From NCBI GenBank assembly GCA_029260345.1, contig JAJDDK010000008.1, forward strand, positions 124,001-188,000: DNA of 64,000 nucleotides, read 5' to 3'. The notes below the pieces were generated by a model. It made no database searches. It saw only the letters and a list, made by a program, of their open reading frames with translations, and was not told the DNA's origin. Each line of letters starts with the position of its first letter. Position 1 is the first letter of the stretch. This DNA is from Phycisphaerales bacterium (GTDB taxonomy: Bacteria > Planctomycetota > Phycisphaerae > Phycisphaerales > UBA1924). The translations under genes and the position numbers were made by a program. This document shows positions 1,272 to 15,030 of the stretch, piece after piece.

Positions 1272-4200
1272 ATGAAACGAAGAATCGATTCTGGAATCAA
1301 GACCTGGACACTTTGGAGCCTTGTGGCTCTCGTTCTATTCCCGTTGCCTGCCACGACCGCCAACGGCGCGCCGATGTTCGAGAGTGAACTGATCGATATT
1401 GGGAGTCCCACCGAATCAATGGCGGCGGGAGACATCAATGGCGACGGTCTCATTGATTTGGTCGCGGCGCCCGCACAGCCAAACCAATTTTCAACACCCC
1501 ACATCTTGCTCATGTTTGCCGATCCGAACGCGCAGCAGGGCTATGTTTCTGTTCAGTTTGAGTTGGAGTTTGAACAACGTCTCGTCAAACTCGTCGATGT
1601 TGATCTGGATAATGACCTTGATCTCATTGTCGCCGGCCATAGCAATGGCGACCCAGACAATCATGAGGTCCAGGTCTTCTTCAATGACGCCTTTGGCAAC
1701 TTCACCATTGAGCAGACTTTTGACTTCACCAACCCTCCGCAGTTTGTGGAACTCAAAGATGTCAACTACGACAATTGGCCGGACATGGTGTTGCTGTTTG
1801 GCAGCGCCGTCGGTGTCTCGCTCAATCAGGGCGACGGTCACTTTGGCCCAACTACGCTCGAAACGGGTTCAACCTCATTCATGAGCTGGATGGAGGTAGC
1901 TGATATTAATGGCGACGGGTTGCAGGATGTTGTGTTTGCTGATTTTGGCGACCAACGAGTTCTCTATGTTTCGATTGCGCTCGATGGGCTTTCACTCTCG
2001 CCAATTTCCAGTATCGAGGTCGGCGTCGTTGACATTCGCGGCATGACGACCGTCGACGTGAACGGCGATGGCGTTTACGAGATTCCAGTCATCATTGATG
2101 GCCCGCTGCAAAACCAGAGCACGCTCAGGATTGTGACGCACCCGATCAATACAGCGTTTCTGCCGCAACCGGACTTCACAGTCAATGAGTATCTCAACCA
2201 GATCTCCGCGGCCAATATCAATAACGACGGCAAGATTGATCTTGTCGCTGATGGTGAATTTTCGAATTTCTATTTCCCTGGCGCTGCGATTGGATTCGAT
2301 CCGCCAATCCCTGCCACTGCAAGCGCGCTTTTTACAAGATTTATCACGACCGATCTCAATGGTGATCTGCACACAGACCTCGTGTGTTTTCGACATTTTG
2401 GCACCAACTCAGCCATCATGATCGCGTACGGATGTGGCGACGGCGGGTTTTCCTCGCGGCCTCCGCAATACGTTTTCGAAACCACCGCATTTGCATACGG
2501 CGATGTGGATGGCGAAGGCGTGCCCGACTTCATCACAACCGATGCCCAAAGCCTGAAAATTCACCTGGCCGTCGATGGTGAATATCAAACCCCAGTCCCG
2601 CTCGACGTGGATGGGCACCGAATTGCCCATGTCACCGATATGGATCTCGACGGCATTCCTGACATCGTCACCACCGGCAGCGCCGGGGCCATTTCCATTC
2701 ATTACGGCCAAGGCGGAATGCAATTCACAACAGTTGTGCTTCCCGCTGATCTGAGTGTTTCGCTCTTTGACGCAGAATCCGTTGACGTGGACGACGATGG
2801 CATCCTGGATATCGTGGTCGCGTCGCGCACCAACATCGTCGCCATCCGACGAGGACTCGGCAATCGAACTTTTGGACCGTCAGAACTTCTTGATCTCACT
2901 TTCTTGCCGCCAAATACAACGCTCACCGGCATTGGTGTCGGCGAGGGCACAGGCGATGGCTTGGTCGACATTTTTGTGACGACGCAGAATCAGTTCAGTG
3001 ATCGCTCTGTCCTTGTCATGGCCGAGAATGATGGCGCCGGTCAGTTCCATGACATATTTCAGCATTTGTGCGGCGGCCCCCTGACATCTCTGCTGGTGGA
3101 GGATCTTGATCAAGACGACCTGATCGACATCGCGGTGGGCGCAGGACTTGATGATTCCCTGACGGTGCTGTGGTCCGAACCGGGTGAGGGTTTGCGCGGC
3201 CCGCAATACCTCCCGACGCCACCGGATTCGATGGCTGAACCTGAATGGATGTGTGCCGGCGACCTCAACCAGGACGGGCATGTTGACATTGTGATTGCAC
3301 TGGAGTCATCGACTCTTGATGTATGGATGAATGACGGGCGCGGTCGATTCAAGCAAACTGAATCGTTCATCTTTGCACAGCAATACTGGCGGACACAAAC
3401 CATGCAGTTGGTGGACGTCACTGGCGATGACATAATCGATGTGGTCATCGGTTTTGGTGATGGGGACATCGTCACAGTTGCCGAAGGCGCCGGCGATGGA
3501 ACCATTGCCTCCATCATCGAATTGCCGTTGCCGCAGAACAATACTCGCCATTCACTCACTGCGAACTGGGATGACGATCCGGAGGATGAGGTCTTCCTGA
3601 TTGACGGCGGCGACTTGCTGCTCGTCGACTTTGATCAAACGCTGATGACGCCAGTGATTCGATCGCTTGATGCGTTGAGGGCGGCGCTCTTGCCGTACGG
3701 GCCAATCGAATACAACGCCACCGTCGCCATCGACGCCAATGGCGATGGCCTTATGGATCTGACTTTTCTTCCAAACACAACCTCGACGCCGATGGTCACC
3801 GTGCTTCATGACGGCGCCGGACTTTCAGAGCACCTCATTATCGAATCACCCGGCGCGCCGCTCCGTCTACGAACCATCGTGGCGGGCGATCTCAATCAAG
3901 ACGGCGCCGCTGACATTCTTGGATTCAACATTGACACGTCAACCGACGGCCCCGACACCATGTACCCGTTGTTCGGAGACAACAGCGGCGCCTTTGTCGG
4001 ATCTCTGGAGCATGCGACGGCCTTAGGCAACGTCATTCCGCCAACGATGCACGACTCCAAACTCGCTGATATGAATGGTGATGGCCATCTCGATCTCATC
4101 TCCATCATGCGTGAACGAAACATTGGCGTCTGGAATGGTCGAGGCAATGGCGCTTTTGAGCCTGGTCATTTCTTCGAGACGGCCTTGCCAAAAGAGCTCA

Positions 4201-4814
4201 TTGTTGACATTGCCGATTTTAATTCCGATGGCCGGCTCGACGTGGCTCCAATCGTTCGATCCAGCAACGTGCGCATTGGAGTCGAAGTCCATTTTGGAAC
4301 ATCTGGAGATCAGTTTGGTGTCCTCTTTGACGGCGCGTTCGGTGACTATCCATCCGGCATCGGTGTGGTTGACACCAAACCAAGTGGGCCGCCCAGTCTC
4401 GCGGTCAGCTTGCGCAATGAGGCTCGTGTCGCCATTGTGGAACTCAATAAGGACCGGACGTTCGGAGTCCGGCGCGAATCCGCTGTTGGACGCGAGCCTG
4501 CGTTCGTAGCGACCGGAGACATCGACCAAGACGGAGATCGTGATTTGACCATCGGCATGACGGGCGCCGTCGTCGGCCATGGTGTGCTCGATGAATTGTT
4601 TACGCTCATCAAGAATCACCGGGATGGGTCGCTTCCCGGCGACCTCGACATGACCGGTTTGGTTGATGGCGGCGACCTCGCGATCCTGCTCGCCCAATGG
4701 GGCAGCGACGGCCCTGCGGACTTCAACAACGATGGCTTTGTCAATGGCGACGATCTGGCCCAGTTGCTGAGTGTGTGGGGGGCGAAATCGAACGCGTCAA
4801 CGCCGTGCGATTGA
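1272..4814 (+). CDS. Large secreted FG-GAP/VCBS repeat protein with C-terminal dockerin-like tag
   Basis: The 1180-residue protein starts with a signal peptide (KRR, then a hydrophobic stretch ending near ATTANGAPM). Nearly its whole length is repeated calcium-loop units such as DINGDGLIDLV, DVDLDNDLDLIVAG and DLNQDGHVDIVIA, the pattern of FG-GAP/VCBS repeats that fold as integrin-like beta-propellers. The C-terminus carries two dockerin-like EF loops (DLDMTGLVDGGDLAILL and DFNNDGFVNGDDLAQLL, each closing on a WG). In Phycisphaerae such tags sit on many secreted proteins without known cohesins. A GGAG lies about 10 nt before the ATG. A surface or extracellular binding role is inferred; the ligand is unknown. 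Confidence 0.85.
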   Translation: MKRRIDSGIKTWTLWSLVALVLFPLPATTANGAPMFESELIDIGSPTESMAAGDINGDGLIDLVAAPAQPNQFSTPHILLMFADPNAQQGYVSVQFELEFEQRLVKLVDVDLDNDLDLIVAGHSNGDPDNHEVQVFFNDAFGNFTIEQTFDFTNPPQFVELKDVNYDNWPDMVLLFGSAVGVSLNQGDGHFGPTTLETGSTSFMSWMEVADINGDGLQDVVFADFGDQRVLYVSIALDGLSLSPISSIEVGVVDIRGMTTVDVNGDGVYEIPVIIDGPLQNQSTLRIVTHPINTAFLPQPDFTVNEYLNQISAANINNDGKIDLVADGEFSNFYFPGAAIGFDPPIPATASALFTRFITTDLNGDLHTDLVCFRHFGTNSAIMIAYGCGDGGFSSRPPQYVFETTAFAYGDVDGEGVPDFITTDAQSLKIHLAVDGEYQTPVPLDVDGHRIAHVTDMDLDGIPDIVTTGSAGAISIHYGQGGMQFTTVVLPADLSVSLFDAESVDVDDDGILDIVVASRTNIVAIRRGLGNRTFGPSELLDLTFLPPNTTLTGIGVGEGTGDGLVDIFVTTQNQFSDRSVLVMAENDGAGQFHDIFQHLCGGPLTSLLVEDLDQDDLIDIAVGAGLDDSLTVLWSEPGEGLRGPQYLPTPPDSMAEPEWMCAGDLNQDGHVDIVIALESSTLDVWMNDGRGRFKQTESFIFAQQYWRTQTMQLVDVTGDDIIDVVIGFGDGDIVTVAEGAGDGTIASIIELPLPQNNTRHSLTANWDDDPEDEVFLIDGGDLLLVDFDQTLMTPVIRSLDALRAALLPYGPIEYNATVAIDANGDGLMDLTFLPNTTSTPMVTVLHDGAGLSEHLIIESPGAPLRLRTIVAGDLNQDGAADILGFNIDTSTDGPDTMYPLFGDNSGAFVGSLEHATALGNVIPPTMHDSKLADMNGDGHLDLISIMRERNIGVWNGRGNGAFEPGHFFETALPKELIVDIADFNSDGRLDVAPIVRSSNVRIGVEVHFGTSGDQFGVLFDGAFGDYPSGIGVVDTKPSGPPSLAVSLRNEARVAIVELNKDRTFGVRRESAVGREPAFVATGDIDQDGDRDLTIGMTGAVVGHGVLDELFTLIKNHRDGSLPGDLDMTGLVDGGDLAILLAQWGSDGPADFNNDGFVNGDDLAQLLSVWGAKSNASTPCD

Positions 4815-5459: not shown

Positions 5460-8400
5460 ATGCTCACCTTTTGTTTGGGTCGAGGGCTCATAGCCTTGGG
5501 CTTCGCCCTGTCTGTGTGCGCCATCGACGCCTCAGGCCAGGTCAATGTGAACAGTGGCGAAACGCTCACGGAGTCGGACCTGCTGGCAGGCGAGTTCAAT
5601 GGACAGATGTTCTCGTTGGGCGCCGAGACAGTATTCAACGTTCAATCAAATGGGATGTTGGCGCCGCTTGGATTTGAGCCTGACTCATTTCCGACCTTGG
5701 ATGGTGATGAACAATACTTTGATTTCAACGCGAGTGTCATTGACGTCAAGACCTTTGGAAAGATCAGATCTTCGTCGTCGGCGCCGACGTTGTTGCGCAA
5801 TGCCACGATCAATCTGTCACTGCTTGGCCAAATCGAAGACTATGCGTTTCTCAGCGGTGGAACACTGAACATAAATGGTGGCTTCACCGGCGAGCGCATC
5901 CGTGTTCTTGAAGGGAGCACGCTCAATCTCATTGAAGGGTCCATTGGATTTGACATCACCGTAATGGACAGTCTTGTCACAATATCAGGCGGGACAATCG
6001 ATGCGGGGTTCGGCGCCGCGCACAGCAGTGTCAATATGATCGAGGGATCGATTGGGATTTTCGGCGACCTCTACGGCGGCAGCACGATGGTCATGTCCGG
6101 TGGATCAATTGGCCAATTGTTCCGCATAACCGATTCAACATTCTCAATGACTGGTGGCGTCCTTGCAGATCGATTCCAAGCCGATGAAGGGAGTCTCGTC
6201 ACGATTCAATCCGGCGTGATCGGTGACGAGTTCACGACCCGGGCCGGGAGTCACGTGCAGGTATTTGGTGGTCGATTTGGCGAAGAGTTTGAAACGCACG
6301 ATGGCGGAATCTCCGACATCTCAGGTGGATCATTCAGCAATTTTTTTCGTGCGTGGGGCGGGAGCACGGTCAATATTGCCGGCGGTTCATTTGGAGGCGA
6401 GATTCAGCTCGACTCCGGCAGCGACGTGCGCTTGATTGGACAAGATTTCAAGATTGATGGGTCGGCTCTTTCCGGTCTCGACTCTTTCGGCGATCAGTTG
6501 GCGTTTGACCTGCCTGAGGGCTCCACTTTCACTGGATTGCTCTCCGACGGAACACCGTTCGCTTTTTCATCCGCTGATCTTGACCTCATTGCCAATGGTG
6601 TCGTGACGCTCGAAGTCGCCGGATCACTTGATCCGGTCCCGTCAATGATTGTTGCGTCGATCGATCCGGTGCCTTTGGGCGTTCGATCAGGTCAAACCAT
6701 AATCGTTGATGCAGGCAGCGTGATTCCGGACCATTTCAACGCGGGCGAAGGAAGCGTCGTTGAAATCATGGATCAGAGCGTTGTCGGTGCGAACTTTGAA
6801 GCCGCGGGTGCGCAAGTCACCATCAGTGGTGGGCAAATCGCGAACGATTTTGATGCGTTCTATGGCGCTGACGTTCTAATCACGGGGGGCGTGATCGGTC
6901 ATCGTTTTGATGCGCACAAAGGCAGTTTGGTGACAATCTCTGGCGGAGAGGTCAAGACATTATTCCAAGCGCATCCCGACAGTCATGTGATCCTCTCTGG
7001 TGGAACAATCGGCGACGACTTTGTCGCGCATGGCGGCAGCGTTGTCGATGTTACTGGAGGCGTCATTGGAGATAGCTCGGACGCCCTCGCTGGCAGCGTG
7101 ATCACAATTTCCGATGGCGGCATTGGGAATCAATTTCGCGCCTATGAAGGAAGCGTTGTCACACTCACCGGTGGCTTTATCGGGCAGTCATTTCAGGCAA
7201 TGCCCGGCAGCAACGTAATGATTTCAGGCGGTCAGGTTTACGATCACTTTAGAGCGCACGAAAACAGCGTCGTCACGATTTCCGACGGAATCGTCGGCGA
7301 TGACTTTGAGAGTCTTTCGAAGAGCTCCGTCACTGTGACAGGCGGCGAGATTGGCGATTTTTTCCGTGCCCATGAAGGAAGCCATGTCGAAATCGCGGGC
7401 GGGACGTTTGGGCGGAGCTTTCGCGCACTTCTTGGAAGCAATGTGACGATTTCTGGTGGATCGTTCGACGAAGGCTTTGTGGGCATTAATTCGAGCGAAA
7501 TCGCCATTTCAGGCGGAAGCTACGGCGATTTCTTCAATGTGGCGTCCGGCGCCGCATTGACGCTGTCCGGTGCGGATTTCAAACTTGATGGCGTCGCACT
7601 GGCGAGCGATCTGCAGCGACGTCGAGTGTTCAATTTCGATCTTCCGGAGGGCAGAACGCTCACAGGAACATTTCTCGACGGGACGCCCTTCGCGTTCTCA
7701 TCGGCGGATCATGACACGATCGCCGACGGGGTTCTGACGCTCCAGATCGGGACGCTGCCCCCGGTTTCGAATCAAACTTTTGTCGCTTCCATCGATCCAC
7801 TCCCTCTGGGCATTCGTGATGGCCAGTCGCTGATCGTCGATGATGGCGGTGTCGTCAACGACAACTTCAACGCTGGCGCTGGAAGCATTGTTGAGGTTCA
7901 CAACGGCGGCATTGTCGGCGTCAATCTGGAATCCGCCGGCGCCCAGATCGAGATCTTCGGTGGCGATGTTGGTGAAGGATTCGACGCGTTTGCGGGCAGC
8001 ACCGTGCTGATGTCTGACGGCGTGATCGGTCGCGAGTTTGAGGCTCACGCTGGGAGCCAAGTGCACATTTCTGGCGGCTATGTTGGGCGCGATGCGCGGG
8101 CGCTTGGCGGAAGCGAGATATTAGTTTCCGGCGGCGCCATTGATCGAGACTTTGTGGCGCACTCCGGCAGCATGGTGACGCTCACCGGCGGCGAGATCCG
8201 CCGCAACTTCGAGGCATTGAACGCGATCATCAACATTTCCGGCGGTGAGCTTGGCGACGATGCCGAAGCGCGGCAAGGAAGTCAATTCTATATCTCGGGC
8301 GGTGTCGTTGGACGCGAACTGCGTGTGTTTGACGGCAGTGTCGTGAACATCACTGGCGGCGATATTGGAAACGAACTGCAGGCGCTTTCCGGCAGCACGG

Positions 8401-9728
8401 TGAACGTTCATGGTGGGACCATCAACGGCAGTTTCAAGGCGCTGAGCGGGAGCCAAGTTCAAGTTACAGGGGGCTCGATCGGCTCTTTCTTCTCTGCAGG
8501 CAATGGAAGCCAGGTCGACCTCACTGGCGGCGTTTTTGGGCGTCACTTTGAAGTCAGCGCCGGCGCCATCGTGAACACAACGGGCGGTGAATTTGAACTC
8601 AATGGGGCGTCCATCAGTGACCTCACGAGTGGGCTACCAATAGGCTCGATCCTGACAGGAACGCTCGCGGACGGCTCCGTGTTTATTTTCAGTTCGGATG
8701 GTGAGGATTCCATCGCGGCAGGTGCGCTCTCGCTGACAACGGTGGCGTTGACCCCTCCGGATCTCACGCCGCAGCTTATTACGACCGGCGAAGGCCCATT
8801 TGGCGGATTGCGTCAAGGACAAAGCCTCACGATCTCCGGCGATGCGTCGCTGCACAATGACTTCGCAGTGGTCAACGCAACGTTGAACGTTCACGGCGGC
8901 TCGATCGGCGATGGTCTTGAGGGCGCATCAAGTGTGTTCGCCATGACCGGCGGACTGGTGGGCGAGAAGTTTCGTATTCATCGAGGCAGCGAACTGCACG
9001 TCTCTGGCGGCAATATTGGTCATGATCTCGGCATTTTCAGCGGCAGCACACTGACCGTATCAGGTGGGTCGATTGGAATTGGGACGGACGTCGCCGGCGA
9101 AAGTGTTGTGTCTCTCCATGATGGAACGATTGGTGATCACTTAACGGTGTTCGACAACTCGACGGTCAATGTTCACGGTGGCGCCATCGGTGACGACCTG
9201 TATGCCTACGGAGGCGCTGTGATCAATATTCTTGGTGGTTCGATTGAACACTCCGCCAGCATTGGCCACGGTGGTGAACTCAACGTCAGCAGCGGGTCTG
9301 TCGGCAACGGGCTTGGCCTGTACGGTCAATCAACACTCAATGTGTCAGGCGGAACGATTGGTGATTTCATTGAGTTTGACGAATACAGCGTCGCCAACAT
9401 TTCCGGCGGCTCAATCGGTGATCGAATTTACGCCGTCAGTGGCAGCGAGATCAATCTGACGGTGCTCGAACTCTTGATCGATAGCGACTTCATCAGCCTC
9501 ACTCCGGGTGAGTCGATCCTTATCGACCAGCGCGGCGGCGCGCTCTTGGAAGCGACGCTCCTCGACGGATCGTATTTCGATTTCAACTTGAATGAGTTCT
9601 TTGTCTCTGGTCAGGACTTCCTTCATTCAGGAGCGACATTGACGGCGGCTCTTATCCCGACGCCGGGCAGCGCCATCGCATTTCTTCTCGCTGGTGGGCT
9701 AGCACTTCGCCGGCGCACTCGATGTTGA
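5460..9728 (+). CDS. Giant repetitive beta-solenoid surface protein with PEP-CTERM-like sorting tail
   Basis: The 1422-residue protein has an N-terminal signal peptide (RGLIALGFALSVCAIDASG) and then dozens of roughly 20-residue units of the form GSxVxISGGxIGDxFxAHx, a period expected of a right-handed beta-solenoid. Three longer linker blocks interrupt the array (each with LTGTFxDGTPFAFSSAD-like sequence followed by a region with a LRxGQSLxI motif), dividing it into larger modules. The C-terminus, IPTPGSAIAFLLAGGLALR then RRTRC, is a PEP-CTERM-like tail: motif, hydrophobic helix and Arg cluster, predicted to be recognised by an exosortase. No exosortase lies in the window. GAGAGGAG stands 9 nt before the ATG. 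Function is unknown; adhesin or matrix scaffold is an inference. Confidence 0.85.
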   Translation: MLTFCLGRGLIALGFALSVCAIDASGQVNVNSGETLTESDLLAGEFNGQMFSLGAETVFNVQSNGMLAPLGFEPDSFPTLDGDEQYFDFNASVIDVKTFGKIRSSSSAPTLLRNATINLSLLGQIEDYAFLSGGTLNINGGFTGERIRVLEGSTLNLIEGSIGFDITVMDSLVTISGGTIDAGFGAAHSSVNMIEGSIGIFGDLYGGSTMVMSGGSIGQLFRITDSTFSMTGGVLADRFQADEGSLVTIQSGVIGDEFTTRAGSHVQVFGGRFGEEFETHDGGISDISGGSFSNFFRAWGGSTVNIAGGSFGGEIQLDSGSDVRLIGQDFKIDGSALSGLDSFGDQLAFDLPEGSTFTGLLSDGTPFAFSSADLDLIANGVVTLEVAGSLDPVPSMIVASIDPVPLGVRSGQTIIVDAGSVIPDHFNAGEGSVVEIMDQSVVGANFEAAGAQVTISGGQIANDFDAFYGADVLITGGVIGHRFDAHKGSLVTISGGEVKTLFQAHPDSHVILSGGTIGDDFVAHGGSVVDVTGGVIGDSSDALAGSVITISDGGIGNQFRAYEGSVVTLTGGFIGQSFQAMPGSNVMISGGQVYDHFRAHENSVVTISDGIVGDDFESLSKSSVTVTGGEIGDFFRAHEGSHVEIAGGTFGRSFRALLGSNVTISGGSFDEGFVGINSSEIAISGGSYGDFFNVASGAALTLSGADFKLDGVALASDLQRRRVFNFDLPEGRTLTGTFLDGTPFAFSSADHDTIADGVLTLQIGTLPPVSNQTFVASIDPLPLGIRDGQSLIVDDGGVVNDNFNAGAGSIVEVHNGGIVGVNLESAGAQIEIFGGDVGEGFDAFAGSTVLMSDGVIGREFEAHAGSQVHISGGYVGRDARALGGSEILVSGGAIDRDFVAHSGSMVTLTGGEIRRNFEALNAIINISGGELGDDAEARQGSQFYISGGVVGRELRVFDGSVVNITGGDIGNELQALSGSTVNVHGGTINGSFKALSGSQVQVTGGSIGSFFSAGNGSQVDLTGGVFGRHFEVSAGAIVNTTGGEFELNGASISDLTSGLPIGSILTGTLADGSVFIFSSDGEDSIAAGALSLTTVALTPPDLTPQLITTGEGPFGGLRQGQSLTISGDASLHNDFAVVNATLNVHGGSIGDGLEGASSVFAMTGGLVGEKFRIHRGSELHVSGGNIGHDLGIFSGSTLTVSGGSIGIGTDVAGESVVSLHDGTIGDHLTVFDNSTVNVHGGAIGDDLYAYGGAVINILGGSIEHSASIGHGGELNVSSGSVGNGLGLYGQSTLNVSGGTIGDFIEFDEYSVANISGGSIGDRIYAVSGSEINLTVLELLIDSDFISLTPGESILIDQRGGALLEATLLDGSYFDFNLNEFFVSGQDFLHSGATLTAALIPTPGSAIAFLLAGGLALRRRTRC

Positions 9729-10026
9729 TTGAACGCCGGTTGTGAATTGGGATTCGCCTTTGCGGAAGCGAAGGGCAGCTGGCGCCGCGAGAATGTTCGC
9801 TGCAATCCAGATTTCTTTGACTCATGTGCACCAGCTTATCACGCGAAAGCGATCGAATATACAGATGGAATCACGATGACTTTTTCGTATGGCTGCCCGC
9901 GCGTGCAATCGCGTGAAGTGATTGATCTCTTCGCAGCATCAAGGATTGCAATGAAGCCGGTGCTCGATCTGGTTTCGGGCAATTGATCGGGACAAAACGT
10001 GATTGCTTGACCCGACACAAAACATT

Positions 10027-10063
10027 GAGAATGCCGCTTTCGCGACAAAGCGGCACTTTGAAT
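10027..10063. repeat. REP-like hairpin, copy A
   Basis: GCCGCTTT (10033-10040) and AAAGCGGC (10047-10054) form a perfect 8-bp stem around CGCGAC. The core AAAGCGGCACT recurs at 13401-13411 and, with changes, at 15048-15057. This copy lies between the solenoid gene and the PKS operon and lacks a T-run, so it is better described as a dispersed palindrome than a terminator. Confidence 0.55.
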
Positions 10064-10225
10064 GCCTCGTCGAGTTGAACTCCAGTGACTTCGTCTGCAG
10101 CGTCATAGCGGCGTGCCCGATCTCTTTGACGCGGGCGCCAGGACATGGACGATGATGCTCCGCAGCTCGATCCGCTTGAGTGTATCTCTTCGCCAGTTGA
10201 TATGAAGCTGCAGGCTCACGACAGA

Positions 10226-10237: not shown

Positions 10238-10924
10238 ATGCGAGCACGGGAACTCAGGCCTGAGTTGATGGATGACCCTGCTATCAATCCTGAAGTTCAT
10301 AGACATGCACTGCAGGGGCTCGCAAGGCTCAACAAATTATCCTTCGCCTCTTATCCGCTTCTTCGCGCGCTCACATCCCGCCTTTCCCCCCGCCCGATTG
10401 AAATCCTCGATGTGGCGACGGGGAGTGGAGACGTTGCGCTTGCGTTCGCTCGGGCCGCAATTCATTGCGGGTATAGATGCACAATCACGCTCACGGACAT
10501 CAGTCCGCTGGCACTTAGCGAAGCTCAAGGACGATTCACCCGTGCGGGAATCGAATCGCGTGTCCTTCAGTTAGACGCCACATGTGATCCCTTGCCAGAG
10601 GCGGACATAACGCTTTGCAGCTTGTTTTTGCATCACCTTGATGAACGAGCAACAACCAGTTTGCTGGCGTCTATGGCTGAATCTGCTCGCATTCTCGCGA
10701 TGGCGAATGATCTTCGTCGCACCGTCTTTGGCAACATCCTGGCTCGAACGGCGCCACGACTCGTTACGACTTCTCGAGTCGTTCACACGGATGCACTTCG
10801 TTCGGCCCGTGCTGCGTTTACACGAATGGAACTTGCCGACCTCGCTCACAAAGCAGGGCTTGGGAATGTCGAAATCAAACGAGTGCCACCATCACGAATG
10901 CTCTTGATCTGGGAACGCCCATGA
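10238..10924 (+). CDS. Class I SAM-dependent methyltransferase of a type III PKS operon
   Basis: The 228-residue protein has a SAM-binding motif I LDVATGSGD at residues 57-65, an acidic motif II region (TLTDISPLAL) and a motif SLFLHHLDE typical of small-molecule class I methyltransferases. It is the first gene of a three-gene operon: its stop overlaps the next start (ATGA at 10921-10924), so the FAD oxidoreductase is probably translationally coupled. With a type III polyketide synthase downstream, the likely substrate is the polyketide (O- or C-methylation of a resorcinol, pyrone or quinone), as with SrsB in the Streptomyces srsABC phenolic-lipid operon. The exact substrate cannot be read from the sequence. 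An alternative start is Met11. Confidence 0.85.
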   Translation: MRARELRPELMDDPAINPEVHRHALQGLARLNKLSFASYPLLRALTSRLSPRPIEILDVATGSGDVALAFARAAIHCGYRCTITLTDISPLALSEAQGRFTRAGIESRVLQLDATCDPLPEADITLCSLFLHHLDERATTSLLASMAESARILAMANDLRRTVFGNILARTAPRLVTTSRVVHTDALRSARAAFTRMELADLAHKAGLGNVEIKRVPPSRMLLIWERP

Positions 10925-12075
10925 GGAGCCATTTACCGTCGAAGAAGTATGACGCTGTGGTTATTGGGGCTGGTCCCGCAGGGTCATTTGCTGCTCGAAA
11001 TCTTGCACTGCGCGGCTGGCGCACACTCTTGCTTGAGGCCGACGAGTTCCCCCGATGGAAAGTATGCGGCGCCTGCCTAGGGAGTTCCGGCGCCAAGATT
11101 TTAGATGATGCGGGTCTTGGAGGGATGCTCGATCGGCTTGGCGCCATCCACCTGAGCAGGACAGAAGTGTGTTGCCATGGACGCACCACTCAGATCGATG
11201 GTTGTGGCATACGAGTTATCTCGCGATCCGCACTTGATTATGCCCTGTCAAATGAAGCCGTAAAGGCAGGGGCTGAATTGAGATACAAGGCAATCGCTCG
11301 AGTCGTCGATGCAGGCAATCACGATCGCTTGGCGAAGGTGAAGTGGATCGAACACGGTGAAATGCACGAGGTGATCGCAGAGTCCGTCATCGTTGCATGC
11401 GGGCTCAATACCAGCCGCGCTGGTGTTGCTACGTCAGGTCGAGCCACAAAGCATTCACTCATGGGGCTGGGAACAACTACAGACGAACTACCCGATTGGC
11501 TTCCCAAGGGTACGCTCAGAATGGTGTTCGCCCGCTATGGGTATGTCGGTTGTGTTCAGACTGAGAGAGGTGGAACAGTTTGGGCAGCCGCAGTCCAGCC
11601 AGGATTCCTGAGAAGCATTGCGTCGCCCCACGAGGCCTGCCGGAGAATACTCGTTCATGCGCGCGTTGAAGCGGGTGCGCTCCCGACCGTTGGTTGGCGT
11701 GGCACTCCTTGCCTGACTCGAAGTCTCAACCCAGGTGAGGGGCGCATCGTTCGTGTGGGCGACGCCGCAGGATACGTTGAACCTGTCACCGGCGAGGGCA
11801 TCTCTTGGGCGCTGGAGAGTGGGTCTCTCGCATCACACGTGATTGACCAAGCGCTCGTTGGGAATCGAGGCGACATCGCAGAGCAATGGGCACAGGTACT
11901 GAAACGTGCTCTTCGCGTGAAGCGATTCAGATGTGCTCTCACAGCGAAAGCAGTCCGGCGACCAGTCGTGACGCACCTTTTCAATGCACTAATGGCACGA
12001 AACCCAGCGCTCGGCCAAGCCACTCTGCGTAAGCTCATCGGCGCACGCTCGCTCGGCGAGAGGACGGCGAGATGA
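10921..12075 (+). CDS. FAD-dependent oxidoreductase (geranylgeranyl reductase-like), PKS operon
   Basis: The 384-residue protein has an N-terminal Rossmann FAD-binding motif (GAGPAG, residues 16-21), an acidic residue ending the second strand (LLLEAD), a WKVCGACLG segment, and a second FAD motif GDAAGYVEPVTGEG near residue 280. This is the layout of the geranylgeranyl reductase/flavin hydroxylase group. It overlaps both neighbours by 4 nt. In comparable operons a flavoenzyme oxidises or reduces the type III PKS product (for example SrsC hydroxylates an alkylresorcinol before quinone formation), so a tailoring role is inferred. Whether it hydroxylates the ring or reduces a double bond cannot be decided here. 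Confidence 0.85.
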   Translation: MRSHLPSKKYDAVVIGAGPAGSFAARNLALRGWRTLLLEADEFPRWKVCGACLGSSGAKILDDAGLGGMLDRLGAIHLSRTEVCCHGRTTQIDGCGIRVISRSALDYALSNEAVKAGAELRYKAIARVVDAGNHDRLAKVKWIEHGEMHEVIAESVIVACGLNTSRAGVATSGRATKHSLMGLGTTTDELPDWLPKGTLRMVFARYGYVGCVQTERGGTVWAAAVQPGFLRSIASPHEACRRILVHARVEAGALPTVGWRGTPCLTRSLNPGEGRIVRVGDAAGYVEPVTGEGISWALESGSLASHVIDQALVGNRGDIAEQWAQVLKRALRVKRFRCALTAKAVRRPVVTHLFNALMARNPALGQATLRKLIGARSLGERTAR

Positions 12076-13154
12076 CGAGGATACGATCGATCTCCAGTGC
12101 CTCGCCCCCATACAGCCTGTCACAACACGACGCTGCGGAGATAGCAGCACGACTCATGCGCGCCGATAGCAGGCGTGCTAGTGCGCTCAAACGCTTCTAC
12201 GGCGCCAGTGGTGTGGACGTGCACTGGACATCCATTGATGAAAGCCAAACCGATACAGCGCTCTACGCCCCCGGGACCAAGGAGGCGCCCTTTGGACCAA
12301 CCACTGCAAAGAGACTTGATGCGTACAACCGCCTTGCCCCACCGTTGGCAATTCGGTCAAGTCTTGATGCGCTCGAGCGAGCGCACATTCAAGCCAAGCA
12401 GATTACACATCTTGTCACCGCGTCATGCACCGGATTTAGCGCGCCAGGTGTCGATGTCGCACTTGTCGAATCATTGGGCATGGATCCTACGGTCGCGCGC
12501 ACGCACGTCGGCTTCATGGGTTGCCACGCGGCTATCAATGCGCTGCGCGTCGCGGATGCTCAGATCAACATGAAGTCCGACGCCATTGCTCTGGTGTGCT
12601 GCGTCGAACTCTGTTCTTTGCATTTCCAATACGCTCCTCGAAATGGTGGCGCAACAGCCAATGCTATTTTCAGCGACGGTGCTGCATCGTGTGTGCTGGC
12701 ACATCAAGGCGAAGGTCCTCAACTCGCTGGTTTTGGTTCACATCTCTGGCCAGATACAACGGACAGCATGGGTTGGCGCATTGGCGACCATGGATTCGAG
12801 ATGACATTGTCTCCAAGGGTGCCGAAGATTCTCGAGAGCAGTGTCCGTGATTGGATTGCTTCCTGGCTGCAATGCTCAGAAATGAAGATCGATGAAATTG
12901 AACAATGGATCATCCACCCAGGCGGCCCGAGGATTGTTGAGAGTGTCTTGCGATCATTAATGCTTGAACCAAATCGAGCACACGAAGCACGCGAATTGGC
13001 TACATGCGTGCTGCGTGACTACGGCAACATGTCATCGCCAACAGTGTTGAAAATGCTCGAATCCAAGCTTCATCATGGCCCCTTAGATGGTCCGACAGTT
13101 GTACTTGCCTTCGGCCCCGGGCTCACTGGCGAGGCTTTGCTCTTGATGCCCTGA
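12072..13154 (+). CDS. Type III polyketide synthase (chalcone/stilbene synthase superfamily)
   Basis: The 360-residue protein has the full triad of type III PKSs: Cys119 in the nucleophile elbow SCTGFSAPG, His282 in WIIHPGGP and Asn319 in GNMSSPTV. It ends in the family signature AFGPGLTGEALLL. The length is normal. Such homodimeric enzymes extend an acyl-CoA or acyl-ACP starter with malonyl units and cyclise the product. Bacterial operons with a methyltransferase and a flavoenzyme usually make methylated alkylresorcinols, alkylpyrones or derived quinones. It is the last gene of the operon (ATGA overlap with the oxidoreductase) and is followed by a hairpin at 13380-13415. The starter unit is not predictable from sequence alone. 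Confidence 0.93.
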   Translation: MTRIRSISSASPPYSLSQHDAAEIAARLMRADSRRASALKRFYGASGVDVHWTSIDESQTDTALYAPGTKEAPFGPTTAKRLDAYNRLAPPLAIRSSLDALERAHIQAKQITHLVTASCTGFSAPGVDVALVESLGMDPTVARTHVGFMGCHAAINALRVADAQINMKSDAIALVCCVELCSLHFQYAPRNGGATANAIFSDGAASCVLAHQGEGPQLAGFGSHLWPDTTDSMGWRIGDHGFEMTLSPRVPKILESSVRDWIASWLQCSEMKIDEIEQWIIHPGGPRIVESVLRSLMLEPNRAHEARELATCVLRDYGNMSSPTVLKMLESKLHHGPLDGPTVVLAFGPGLTGEALLLMP

Positions 13155-13468
13155 TAACTTCTCTTAGAGGCGCGGAAGCTCGCAAACTCGAACGCCTCTC
13201 GGGTATTGACGATTGACCTGCGCTGACCGGCGCCGCGTGCTGGGCACACACTCAAAGTCATGAGTGCTTTCTTCGACGAGGCATTCAATTCGGAATCTAG
13301 AACTCCAGACCTGAGCCTTAAGCTCTCGCCGCTCCTCTCTTGGCCAGTCTGGAAAGAGTCTTGAAGATTCCTTGATCATCGAGAGTGCCCTTTTCCACGC
13401 AAAGCGGCACTCTCGATTCCGAACCTGCCAACGGCCAGTTGCACCTGTCCCAAGCACGCCGTTCCGGT
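13155..13468. other. Intergenic region between convergent PKS operon and dockerin protein
   Basis: No gene was recognised. The only marked structure is the hairpin at 13380-13415. The region separates two convergent genes and presumably holds both transcript ends. Confidence 0.5.
13380..13415. repeat. REP-like hairpin, copy B, downstream of the PKS gene
   Basis: CGAGAGTGCC (13380-13389) and GGCACTCTCG (13406-13415) are perfect complements, a 10-bp stem with a partly paired CTTT...AAAG interior. It shares AAAGCGGCACT with copy A at 10027-10063, so the PKS operon is bracketed by related palindromes. It may also end transcription, although no T-run follows. Confidence 0.6.
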
Positions 13469-14800
13469 TTAGAGACACGGCCCCCAGTTCGCCAGCAGTG
13501 TCGCCAGGTCATCGCCATTTACGATGCCATCGCCATTGAAATCCGCCTCAATATCGTCCGTGCCCCACCTGGCGAGAAGCGTCGCGAGATCGTCACCGTT
13601 CACGAGAGCATTGGAGTCGAAATCGCTCTTGCAATTCGGAGGCAAGCCGCCGCCGGAGATTCGAAATGAACCGAAAAAGTAATCTTCAGCGACGAAGAAT
13701 GGATCAGTGATGTCATCCGCAGACATTCCATACTGCACGGTGTCCCAGAGGTTTGCAAAAATTGGAGGCGCTTGTTCGAAATGCCCTGAAGTAAATGCCT
13801 CAACACCTCTCGCATTCAATGCAATCCCAAGGCCCTCTTTGACAAACGTTGTCAACGGGTCGTCCTCGCGGCCGGGATAAATGTTGACCCATGCTGCGGG
13901 TCTACCATCGATAGTTGGCAGCGCTCCATTTGCCAGCCGCGGGTCAATAATGGGAGGACTTGCGGCCAAGGACGACTGCGTTTTGACCCAAAGACTGGTT
14001 CCTTCAACACCAATTTCGTCAACCGTGACGATCATCATCATCGTGAACCATTCGTTCACCGGCGCTGGCAAGTCCGGATTGGGCGGCAACGCATAGAACG
14101 TGCCAACGCCAGCCCCAATCGGTAACCCCAGACTCACGAATCGATCGAGCACGCCATCTTTGTTTAGGAATGATGTCAAAGAGGGGCTTGTGAAATTGGT
14201 CCCGCCGAAGAACACGCGATGCAACACCATAGAGTTGCCGAAATCCACAGGACTCCAGAACAACCCTGTGCGCGCTTCACCCGACTGGGAGGAAAGATAG
14301 ATCTCCTGCGCCACAACGATCGGCAATTCCGGGGTCGGGGCGATGGCGCCATGGTGATAGTTTCCAATCGAGGCGAATCCCGACAGAAAGCCCGATTGCC
14401 CTGTTTCACGTGCTGCGGCAAGAAAGTGGCTCACATCGGCGCCCGTCGTGGACTGCCCACCAGGAACGGAACCGCCGGCAGCCTGCATCACCGCTCCATT
14501 GGCGGCGCCAAACCATGGCGCACTGACCGATGACGTGTAAATGAAACCAAGTGGATTCAACTGCCCGACGATTGGCACGAGCGAGAACGGCACATTCGTG
14601 TAATTCGTCAATTGATAACTTGAATAGTCATCGATAAACGGAACACCTTCCTCGGATGCGTACGGAGCGGAATGGTCGCTACCGGAACCGCTGAGCGGTT
14701 GGATTGAATCCGCCAATCCGGGGTCTGCCAGACATGTCGCAGAAAGACCAAGCATTGCGGCAAACAGGACTACATCGAGATGTATATGAAGTGCGCCCAT
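13469..14800 (-). CDS. Secreted protein of unknown function with C-terminal dockerin-like tag
   Basis: Taking Met12 of the longer frame as start gives 443 residues with a signal peptide (HLDVVLFAAMLGLSATCLAD). The body is not recognised; it is rich in Gly, Pro and aromatic residues, as in secreted beta-rich proteins. The last 55 residues are two dockerin-like loops: DFDSNALVNGDDLATLLARW and DFNGDGIVNGDDLATLLANW, then GPCL. These tags match those of the proteins at 1272-4814 and 51694-53016. It converges on the PKS operon. Starts at Met1 or Met4 of the longer frame (14833, 14824) are possible but lengthen the region before the signal peptide. Confidence 0.75.
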   Translation of the reverse strand: MGALHIHLDVVLFAAMLGLSATCLADPGLADSIQPLSGSGSDHSAPYASEEGVPFIDDYSSYQLTNYTNVPFSLVPIVGQLNPLGFIYTSSVSAPWFGAANGAVMQAAGGSVPGGQSTTGADVSHFLAAARETGQSGFLSGFASIGNYHHGAIAPTPELPIVVAQEIYLSSQSGEARTGLFWSPVDFGNSMVLHRVFFGGTNFTSPSLTSFLNKDGVLDRFVSLGLPIGAGVGTFYALPPNPDLPAPVNEWFTMMMIVTVDEIGVEGTSLWVKTQSSLAASPPIIDPRLANGALPTIDGRPAAWVNIYPGREDDPLTTFVKEGLGIALNARGVEAFTSGHFEQAPPIFANLWDTVQYGMSADDITDPFFVAEDYFFGSFRISGGGLPPNCKSDFDSNALVNGDDLATLLARWGTDDIEADFNGDGIVNGDDLATLLANWGPCL

Positions 14801-15030
14801 ACATTCAATAATAGCCGGATCCATCGCTCTCAAAAGCGCAAAAGCGCCAATTTGCTGCGGCTAATCGACGAAACGAGAAATGCTGGATCAACTCGCGCCA
14901 CATACGAATGGGACTTGCGTGGCCCAAATTGCCGTTGAGATTGCACTCGTTCATTCTCGATCTGCAAACGGCACAGAGTCAATCGCTCTGTATTACTTGA
15001 TTGGCATTGCGCAATCGCCCCACGAGGCCA

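What the first reader, a model, noticed from the sequence alone, without database searches (positions are those of the whole stretch)
10238..13154. Compact type III PKS, methyltransferase and flavoenzyme operon in a planctomycete
Three genes with two ATGA overlaps encode an intact type III PKS (Cys119/His282/Asn319), a class I methyltransferase and a geranylgeranyl-reductase-like flavoprotein. The layout resembles the srsABC phenolic-lipid logic but with the methyltransferase first and a possible leaderless start. The order and the planctomycete host may mean a different product, such as a methylated alkylpyrone or quinone. No starter-supply gene is in the operon.
Basis: partly seen in the sequence, partly recalled or inferred. 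Interest (0 to 1): 0.7.

Follow-up and report, generated by a model that had tools for sequence, protein, structure and literature searches.

The report
Alkylresorcinol lipid operon, known type
Three adjacent genes in a planctomycete encode a widespread, already described enzyme set that most likely builds a long-tailed phenolic lipid (an alkylresorcinol) and then methylates and oxidises it; it is an intact but ordinary member of a known group.

Summary
The operon is real and looks intact: methyltransferase 10238-10924, FAD enzyme 10921-12075, type III PKS 12072-13154, with two ATGA overlaps. One residue was misread: the nucleophile is Cys151, not Cys119; His282 and Asn319 are right.

The methyltransferase-first order is not odd. 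It is the hidABC order of picocyanobacterial hierridin clusters, reported for 58 of 96 planctomycete type III PKS genes (PMC10896814). I found it strictly in 22 of 30, 30 of 60 and 61 of 80 loci. The PKS lies in one tree clade with Gimesia and picocyanobacterial enzymes. It has Trp235 where Trp versus Gly decides resorcinol versus pyrone in ArsB/ArsC.

Best reading: an acyl-primed 5-alkylresorcinol synthase, then ring methylation and FAD-dependent ring hydroxylation. The srsABC likeness is functional only. Pyrone is disfavoured, not excluded. No product was measured; the methylation site and the FAD step are inferred.

In passing: a perfect 16-bp inverted repeat and two related hairpins bracket the operon; exact copies of the repeat, and the hairpin core searched for, occur nowhere else in the held genome. 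Meaning unknown.

The parts
10238..10924 (+). class I SAM methyltransferase (HidA-like; UbiE/COQ5 superfamily), 228 aa
   Evidence: ORF; PF13649, PF08242, PF01209 and PF08241 above cut-off; PRK06202 family NF004851 156 bits, below its cut-off 243; 50% identical to L032, 40% to Gimesia L150, 41% to Cyanobium-type L209
10921..12075 (+). FAD-dependent oxidoreductase (HidB-like), 384 aa, most likely the ring hydroxylase
   Evidence: ORF; PF01494; model pLDDT 87.9 matches flavoprotein halogenase, geranylgeranyl-reductase and p-hydroxybenzoate-hydroxylase folds, Z 30.5-36.2 in the 50 rows shown
12072..13154 (+). type III polyketide synthase (HidC-like), 360 aa; triad Cys151, His282, Asn319; Trp235 and Met244 in the cyclisation pocket
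   Evidence: ORF; Pfam; alignments; residue table; model pLDDT 92.1, Z 44.7-47.0 to the 50 solved entries shown
12522..12524 (+). codon of nucleophile Cys151
   Evidence: position; aligned with PKS18 Cys175
12774..12776 (+). codon of Trp235, at the ArsB Trp281 / ArsC Gly284 cyclisation switch
   Evidence: aligned; role from PMC6274091
10921..10924 (+). ATGA stop/start overlap, methyltransferase-FAD gene
   Evidence: a 4-base NTGA overlap at 89 of 121 family junctions, the window's included
12072..12075 (+). ATGA stop/start overlap, FAD gene-PKS
   Evidence: a 4-base NTGA overlap at 71 of 126 family junctions, the window's included

Best explanation
This is a hidABC-type tailored-alkylresorcinol operon. 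The PKS (HidC-like) loads a long-chain fatty acyl group onto Cys151, extends it with three malonyl-CoA units, and folds the tetraketide by C2-C7 aldol condensation against Trp235 to give a 5-alkylresorcinol. The class I methyltransferase (HidA-like) then adds a methyl group, probably to ring carbon as reported for Gimesia maris. The FAD enzyme (HidB-like) probably hydroxylates the ring, giving a methylated alkyl-hydroquinone-type lipid that could oxidise to a quinone. Shown here: operon structure, family membership, co-conservation, and active-site residues. Inferred: chain length, CoA versus ACP starter, C versus O methylation, the FAD reaction and the cellular role.
For: Order and co-conservation: strict MT-FAD-PKS in 22 of 30, 30 of 60 and 61 of 80 loci (looser count for the named set 63 of 80), including Gimesia, Synechococcus/Cyanobium and Halomonas. 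L032 is the nearest row for the FAD protein and the methyltransferase and the nearest full-length row for the PKS (49%; a partial 288-aa row, L179, has 50%). Tree: window PKS inside a 77-row clade (SH-aLRT 88; inner 75 rows 97) with Gimesia and picocyanobacterial PKSs. Milke et al. 2024: PKSs of G. maris and R. baltica from this operon made C17, and for G. maris also C15, alkylresorcinols; G. maris methyltransferase plus oxidoreductase gave one added methyl, probably on carbon (PMC10896814). Trp235 aligns with the one residue at which ArsC wild type and its G284W mutant differ, the Trp that favours resorcinol (PMC6274091); Trp in 144 of 146 HidC-like rows and Met244 in 143 of 146; HidC-clade enzymes are reported to have Met at the CHS Phe265 position (PMC8086630). 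Hierridin B is hydroxylated at ring position 4 (PMC10896814).
Against: No product data. HidC and the G. maris and R. baltica proteins themselves were not in my tree by name; named Gimesia and cyanobacterial loci stood in. PKS11, a pyrone synthase, also has Trp at this position, so Trp is not sufficient. Of the PKS18 tunnel residues, C205 is matched by Cys181 but A209 by bulkier Phe185. Identity is only 40-44% to two named Gimesia PKSs and 41-45% to 11 cyanobacterial ones. In C. glutamicum the G. maris oxidoreductase gave no change that the authors could assign, so the hydroxylation step is unproven. The two planctomycete PKSs tested outside such operons gave no product.
Confidence: 0.75

Rival explanations
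1. The PKS lactonises its tetraketide to a long-chain alkylpyrone, which the methyltransferase then methylates.
For: The best sequence matches among solved structures include pyrone synthases PKS18 and PKS11; PKS11 ranks first by fold with Z 47.0 and also carries Trp at the switch.
Against: The 50 fold matches shown lie within 2.3 Z of each other, so fold does not choose. The closest tested homologues make resorcinols (PMC10896814). [quoted passage not shown]
Confidence: 0.12
2. The FAD enzyme is not a ring hydroxylase but reduces a double bond (geranylgeranyl-reductase-like), for example in the alkyl chain.
For: TIGR02032 superfamily hit; geranylgeranyl-reductase-like 3oz2 at Z 35.0, above the aromatic hydroxylases (best 31.9).
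Against: Score below the curated cut-off. The recalled [YF]xWxFP reductase motif is absent in 125 of 125 family members; 123 of 125 have GYxG. The related hierridin pathway needs ring hydroxylation.
Confidence: 0.2
3. The FAD enzyme is a flavin halogenase that chlorinates or brominates the resorcinol.
For: The best sequence matches in the PDB are halogenases, and halogenases are among the top fold matches, tied with others; hierridin C is chlorinated by an unknown mechanism (PMC8086630).
Against: The halogenase motif WxWxIP (recalled) is absent in 125 of 125 family members.
Confidence: 0.05

Closest known systems
hidABC (hierridin) cluster of picocyanobacteria, Costa et al. 2019 (not read; seen through passages of PMC8086630 and PMC10896814)
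   Same: Gene order methyltransferase-oxidoreductase-PKS; homologous proteins in picocyanobacterial loci of the same layout; Met at the CHS Phe265 position.
   Different: 41-45% PKS identity to the 11 cyanobacterial loci fetched; methylation site and final product unknown here.
Planctomycete alkylresorcinol operon (mtr-fdo-t3pks), Milke et al. 2024, PMC10896814
   Same: Same phylum, order and families; 58 of 96 type III PKS genes in that study sit in it.
   Different: The host is labelled only 'same phylum' as the Gimesia-like genomes; PKS 40-44% identical to the two named Gimesia loci.
srsABC of Streptomyces griseus
   Same: Functional logic: PKS, methyltransferase, flavin hydroxylase acting on alkylresorcinols (PMC6669644).
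   Different: PKS-first order (recalled); SrsB is annotated as an isoprenylcysteine carboxyl methyltransferase type, not class I.
ArsB/ArsC of Azotobacter vinelandii
   Same: Long-chain tetraketide chemistry; Trp at the cyclisation switch as in ArsB.
   Different: ars operon with a fatty acid synthase (PMC6274091); only 92 bits to ArsC G284W and 86 to wild type.

Membership tests
hidABC-type alkylresorcinol operon | gene order methyltransferase-FAD oxidoreductase-type III PKS on one strand | tested here: met
hidABC-type alkylresorcinol operon | PKS in the clade of HidC/Gimesia-type enzymes | tested here: met
   77-row clade, SH-aLRT 88 (75 rows: 97); named Gimesia and picocyanobacterial loci stand in for the characterised proteins; quick tree, no bootstrap
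hidABC-type alkylresorcinol operon | Met at the CHS Phe265 position of the PKS | tested here: met
   Met244 aligned with the equivalent ArsC Met293; 143 of 146 family rows; trait from PMC8086630; CHS numbering equivalence by spacing and recall
hidABC-type alkylresorcinol operon | product is a 5-alkylresorcinol that is methylated and hydroxylated | not testable with these tools
   needs expression and mass spectrometry
srsABC phenolic-lipid operon | isoprenylcysteine-carboxyl-methyltransferase-type SrsB | tested here: not met
   one search lists only class I methyltransferase families at E 0.001; SrsB type from PMC6669644
alkylpyrone synthase (PKS18/PKS11/ArsC type) | pocket that allows lactonisation (small residue at ArsC Gly284) | tested here: inconclusive
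   Trp235 here, but pyrone-making PKS11 also has Trp
3,5-dihydroxyphenylacetyl-CoA synthase DpgA (NF042429) | score above the curated cut-off of 425 bits | tested here: not met
   143 bits
geranylgeranyl reductase family TIGR02032 | score above the curated cut-off of 158.8 bits | tested here: not met
   115.2 bits; fold shared
flavin-dependent halogenase | WxWxIP motif (recalled) | tested here: not met
   absent in the window protein and all 125 family members scanned

The most novel reading that the evidence does not exclude
The operon is a discrete DNA cassette in this genome, inserted or even invertible, bounded by a perfect 16-bp inverted repeat (10058-10073 / 13273-13288; no other exact copy in the held 3.4 Mb) and a pair of related hairpins whose core pattern was found nowhere else in it. 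Its end product would be a further-oxidised, C-methylated alkylresorcinol quinone not yet described from this planctomycete lineage.
Probability: 0.07. Interest if true: 0.5.

Novelty: new member of a known kind. Interest (0 to 1): 0.22.

Why it matters
It adds a divergent, intact member from a planctomycete lineage that is not close to the Gimesia-type strains tested by Milke et al. It also shows the same operon in two Halomonas-group genomes and in bins labelled Acidobacteria, Gemmatimonadetes, Melainabacteria, Elusimicrobia and others, beyond the planctomycete-cyanobacteria pair discussed in PMC10896814. It links the order to a testable residue prediction (Trp235 gives resorcinol). It does not open a new class of chemistry.

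Tried and rejected
Leaderless-start idea: no promoter-like site upstream and no shared upstream DNA seen by eye in the 14 relatives printed; left as unproven. Viral contigs: no relative found in IMG/VR with the single-protein query. DpgA-like product: score far below cut-off. Halogenase and geranylgeranyl-reductase readings of the FAD enzyme: fold neighbours, but recalled motifs absent. Fold comparison cannot choose between pyrone and resorcinol: the 50 PKS rows shown lie between Z 44.7 and 47.0, and ArsC is not among them. Recent foreign origin by base composition: operon G+C 56.4% against 59.6 +/- 2.6% for same-size stretches of the window, not striking. Mobile-element explanation for the flanking repeats: no recombinase or transposase among the 10 neighbouring ORFs scanned, 3 of which had no Pfam match at all; the flanks of 23 relatives, two of them (L056, L057) wrongly set by my script, show no inverted repeat above 12 bp. 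Class Phycisphaerae was not tested. The phylum is supported because a genome marked 'same phylum' has a contig of the same length (92,596) as a named Gemmata record, with an identical PKS row.

The strict script scores some loci as incomplete (L059, L101, L117, L152, L199) that or 35 show with all three genes; L098 counts as complete there although its FAD hit is doubtful.
Full report
WHAT IS THERE. The window holds three + strand genes, 10238-10924, 10921-12075 and 12072-13154, joined by two ATGA overlaps. They encode a class I methyltransferase, an FAD enzyme of the geranylgeranyl-reductase / aromatic-hydroxylase fold group, and a type III polyketide synthase. The PKS is the only PF00195 match in the held 3.4-Mb host genome. 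Four-base NTGA overlaps recur in the family, at 89 of 121 MT-FAD and 71 of 126 FAD-PKS junctions, the window's included. The three products keep nearly all family-conserved residues, so the operon looks intact.

A CORRECTION. Aligned with PKS18, Cys151 in GFMGCHAA matches catalytic Cys175. Cys119 matches Ser143, which the review PMC6274091 lists among acyl-tunnel residues (passages read). Cys151, His282 and Asn319 are present in all 146 HidC-like rows and in all 25 other rows.

WHERE IT BELONGS. Milke et al. 2024 (PMC10896814; abstract, passages, two of the three parts of Results, and the Discussion read) found 96 type III PKS genes in 131 planctomycete genomes. In 58 the PKS is the last gene of a methyltransferase-oxidoreductase-PKS operon, the same order as hidABC of picocyanobacteria. 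In my own data the PKS has relatives in 29 of 61 nearest genomes (E 1e-5, host included) and in 131 of 294 genomes across the phylum (E 1e-20, host included). Strict MT-FAD-PKS order holds in 22 of 30 loci from the first set, 30 of 60 fetched from the second, and 61 of 80 named loci (looser count 63 of 80). The rest are contig ends, other PKS clades, rearranged or partial operons, or PKSs with neither neighbour. Carriers by record title include Gimesia, Synechococcus/Cyanobium-type cyanobacteria and Halomonas, and bins labelled Acidobacteria and Gemmatimonadetes.

In a 96-row tree (quick method, SH-aLRT only) the window PKS pairs with L032 from the same family (98) and sits in a 77-row clade (88; inner 75 rows 97) with the Gimesia and cyanobacterial enzymes. 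The outgroup chosen was not a single clade, and 38 of 92 inner branches were weak. L032 is also the nearest row for the FAD protein (44%) and the methyltransferase (50%), which fits joint inheritance.

WHAT IT MAKES. The enzymes of G. maris, R. baltica and Stieleria maiorica gave 5-alkylresorcinols in C. glutamicum. Adding the G. maris methyltransferase and oxidoreductase gave one methyl, probably on carbon, and the oxidoreductase's role stayed open (PMC10896814). Hierridin B itself is a 5-pentadecylresorcinol hydroxylated at position 4 and O-methylated at 1 and 3. The cyclisation choice can be checked at one residue. In Azotobacter, ArsB Trp281 favours aldol closure to resorcinol and ArsC Gly284 favours pyrone (PMC6274091). 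The window Trp235 aligns with that position: the two ArsC sequences in the PDB set, wild type 3vs8 and mutant 3vs9, differ there as G and W. Met244 aligns with the neighbouring ArsC Met293, and HidC-clade enzymes are reported to have Met there (PMC8086630, passages). Trp is present in 144 and Met in 143 of 146 HidC-like rows. Against this, PKS11, a pyrone synthase, also has Trp at the switch, so the residue supports but does not prove resorcinol. The tunnel comparison is mixed too: Cys181 equals PKS18 Cys205, but Phe185 replaces Ala209.

THE TAILORING STEPS. The FAD model (pLDDT 87.9) matches flavoprotein halogenases and geranylgeranyl-reductase-like proteins (Z about 34-36) and, somewhat less well, p-hydroxybenzoate hydroxylases (Z up to 31.9), so the fold does not name the reaction and if anything leans away from the hydroxylases. 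Two motifs that I recall for halogenases (WxWxIP) and reductases ([YF]xWxFP) are absent from 125 of 125 members, while 123 have GYxG. By analogy with hierridin I favour ring hydroxylation. The methyltransferase is about equally far from the Gimesia (40%) and cyanobacterial (41%) proteins, so carbon versus oxygen methylation is open.

THE SRS COMPARISON. It works like srsABC in outline but is not that operon: SrsB is described as an isoprenylcysteine carboxyl methyltransferase type (PMC6669644, passages), a different protein family from the class I enzyme here.

LITERATURE SEARCHES. Searches for type III PKS with Planctomycetota, hierridin with type III PKS and methyltransferase, PKS18 tunnel, ArsB/ArsC, hidA/hidB/hidC, alkylresorcinol with srsB/srsC and Phycisphaer- with alkylresorcinol listed no paper that I could see as characterising this locus; most listed papers were seen as titles and abstract starts only. 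A 2025 review states that the five compound classes reported from planctomycetes all came from class Planctomycetia (PMC12078418, passages). Costa et al. 2019 and Satou et al. 2013 were not read; they are known here only through the papers above.

SIDE OBSERVATION. The operon is bracketed by a perfect 16-bp inverted repeat and by two related hairpins (73% identical over 44 nt). A whole-genome search for the 16-mer gave 8 matches at up to two mismatches, of which only these two are exact and the other six have two mismatches. The hairpin core pattern occurs only at these two places. In 1,941 random pairs of same-size stretches of the window the longest inverted match was 15; in 1,000 shuffles of the two flanks it was 14. 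Flanks of 23 relatives, two of them wrongly set, show none above 12. A stricter pattern was absent from all 294 phylum genomes, but it does not match the host's own hairpins either, so that call says little. Both hairpins lie near gene ends, so duplicated terminators are the plain reading; a cassette boundary is the bold one.

VERDICT. A sound observation with one misassigned residue, describing an intact new member of a known and widespread operon type. The suggested novelty of order and product is not supported.

Noticed in passing
window 10023-10073 and 13273-13420: Perfect 16-bp inverted repeat and two related hairpins bracket the operon; no other exact copy of the 16-mer and no other match to the hairpin core pattern in the held genome. 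RNA folding z-scores are -2.3 upstream and -4.8 / -4.1 (+/- strand) downstream.
   Followed up: partly
L121 and L125 (genomes G180 and G077): HidC-like PKSs with Val instead of Trp at the cyclisation switch and no methyltransferase or FAD neighbour; G077 also carries a normal operon copy (L116). Possible natural pyrone-forming variants.
   Followed up: partly
L056, L057, L058, L061: A second type III PKS clade in host relatives, with an FAD-like gene (195-215 bits) downstream and Pro at the PKS18 Cys205 position; product unknown.
   Followed up: no
L122, L124, L126, L127, L128: Rearranged operons: FAD gene upstream and methyltransferase downstream of the PKS, or PKS-MT-FAD order.
   Followed up: no
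L129-L141: Planctomycete type III PKSs with no MT or FAD neighbour found and Tyr, Trp or Phe at the switch (6, 5 and 2 of 13); the 8 put in the tree do not form one clade.
   Followed up: no
window 5460-9728 (+): 1,422-aa repetitive secreted-looking protein with many SGG-type repeats and a hydrophobic-plus-arginine tail resembling PEP-CTERM (by eye); no Pfam match at E 0.001.
   Followed up: partly
window 13469-14833 (-): Secreted-looking 454-aa protein whose C-terminus has two dockerin-like DxNxD repeats (by eye); no Pfam match at E 0.001.
   Followed up: partly
window 1272-4814 (+): 1,180-aa FG-GAP repeat protein (PF13517, 226.6 bits).
   Followed up: no
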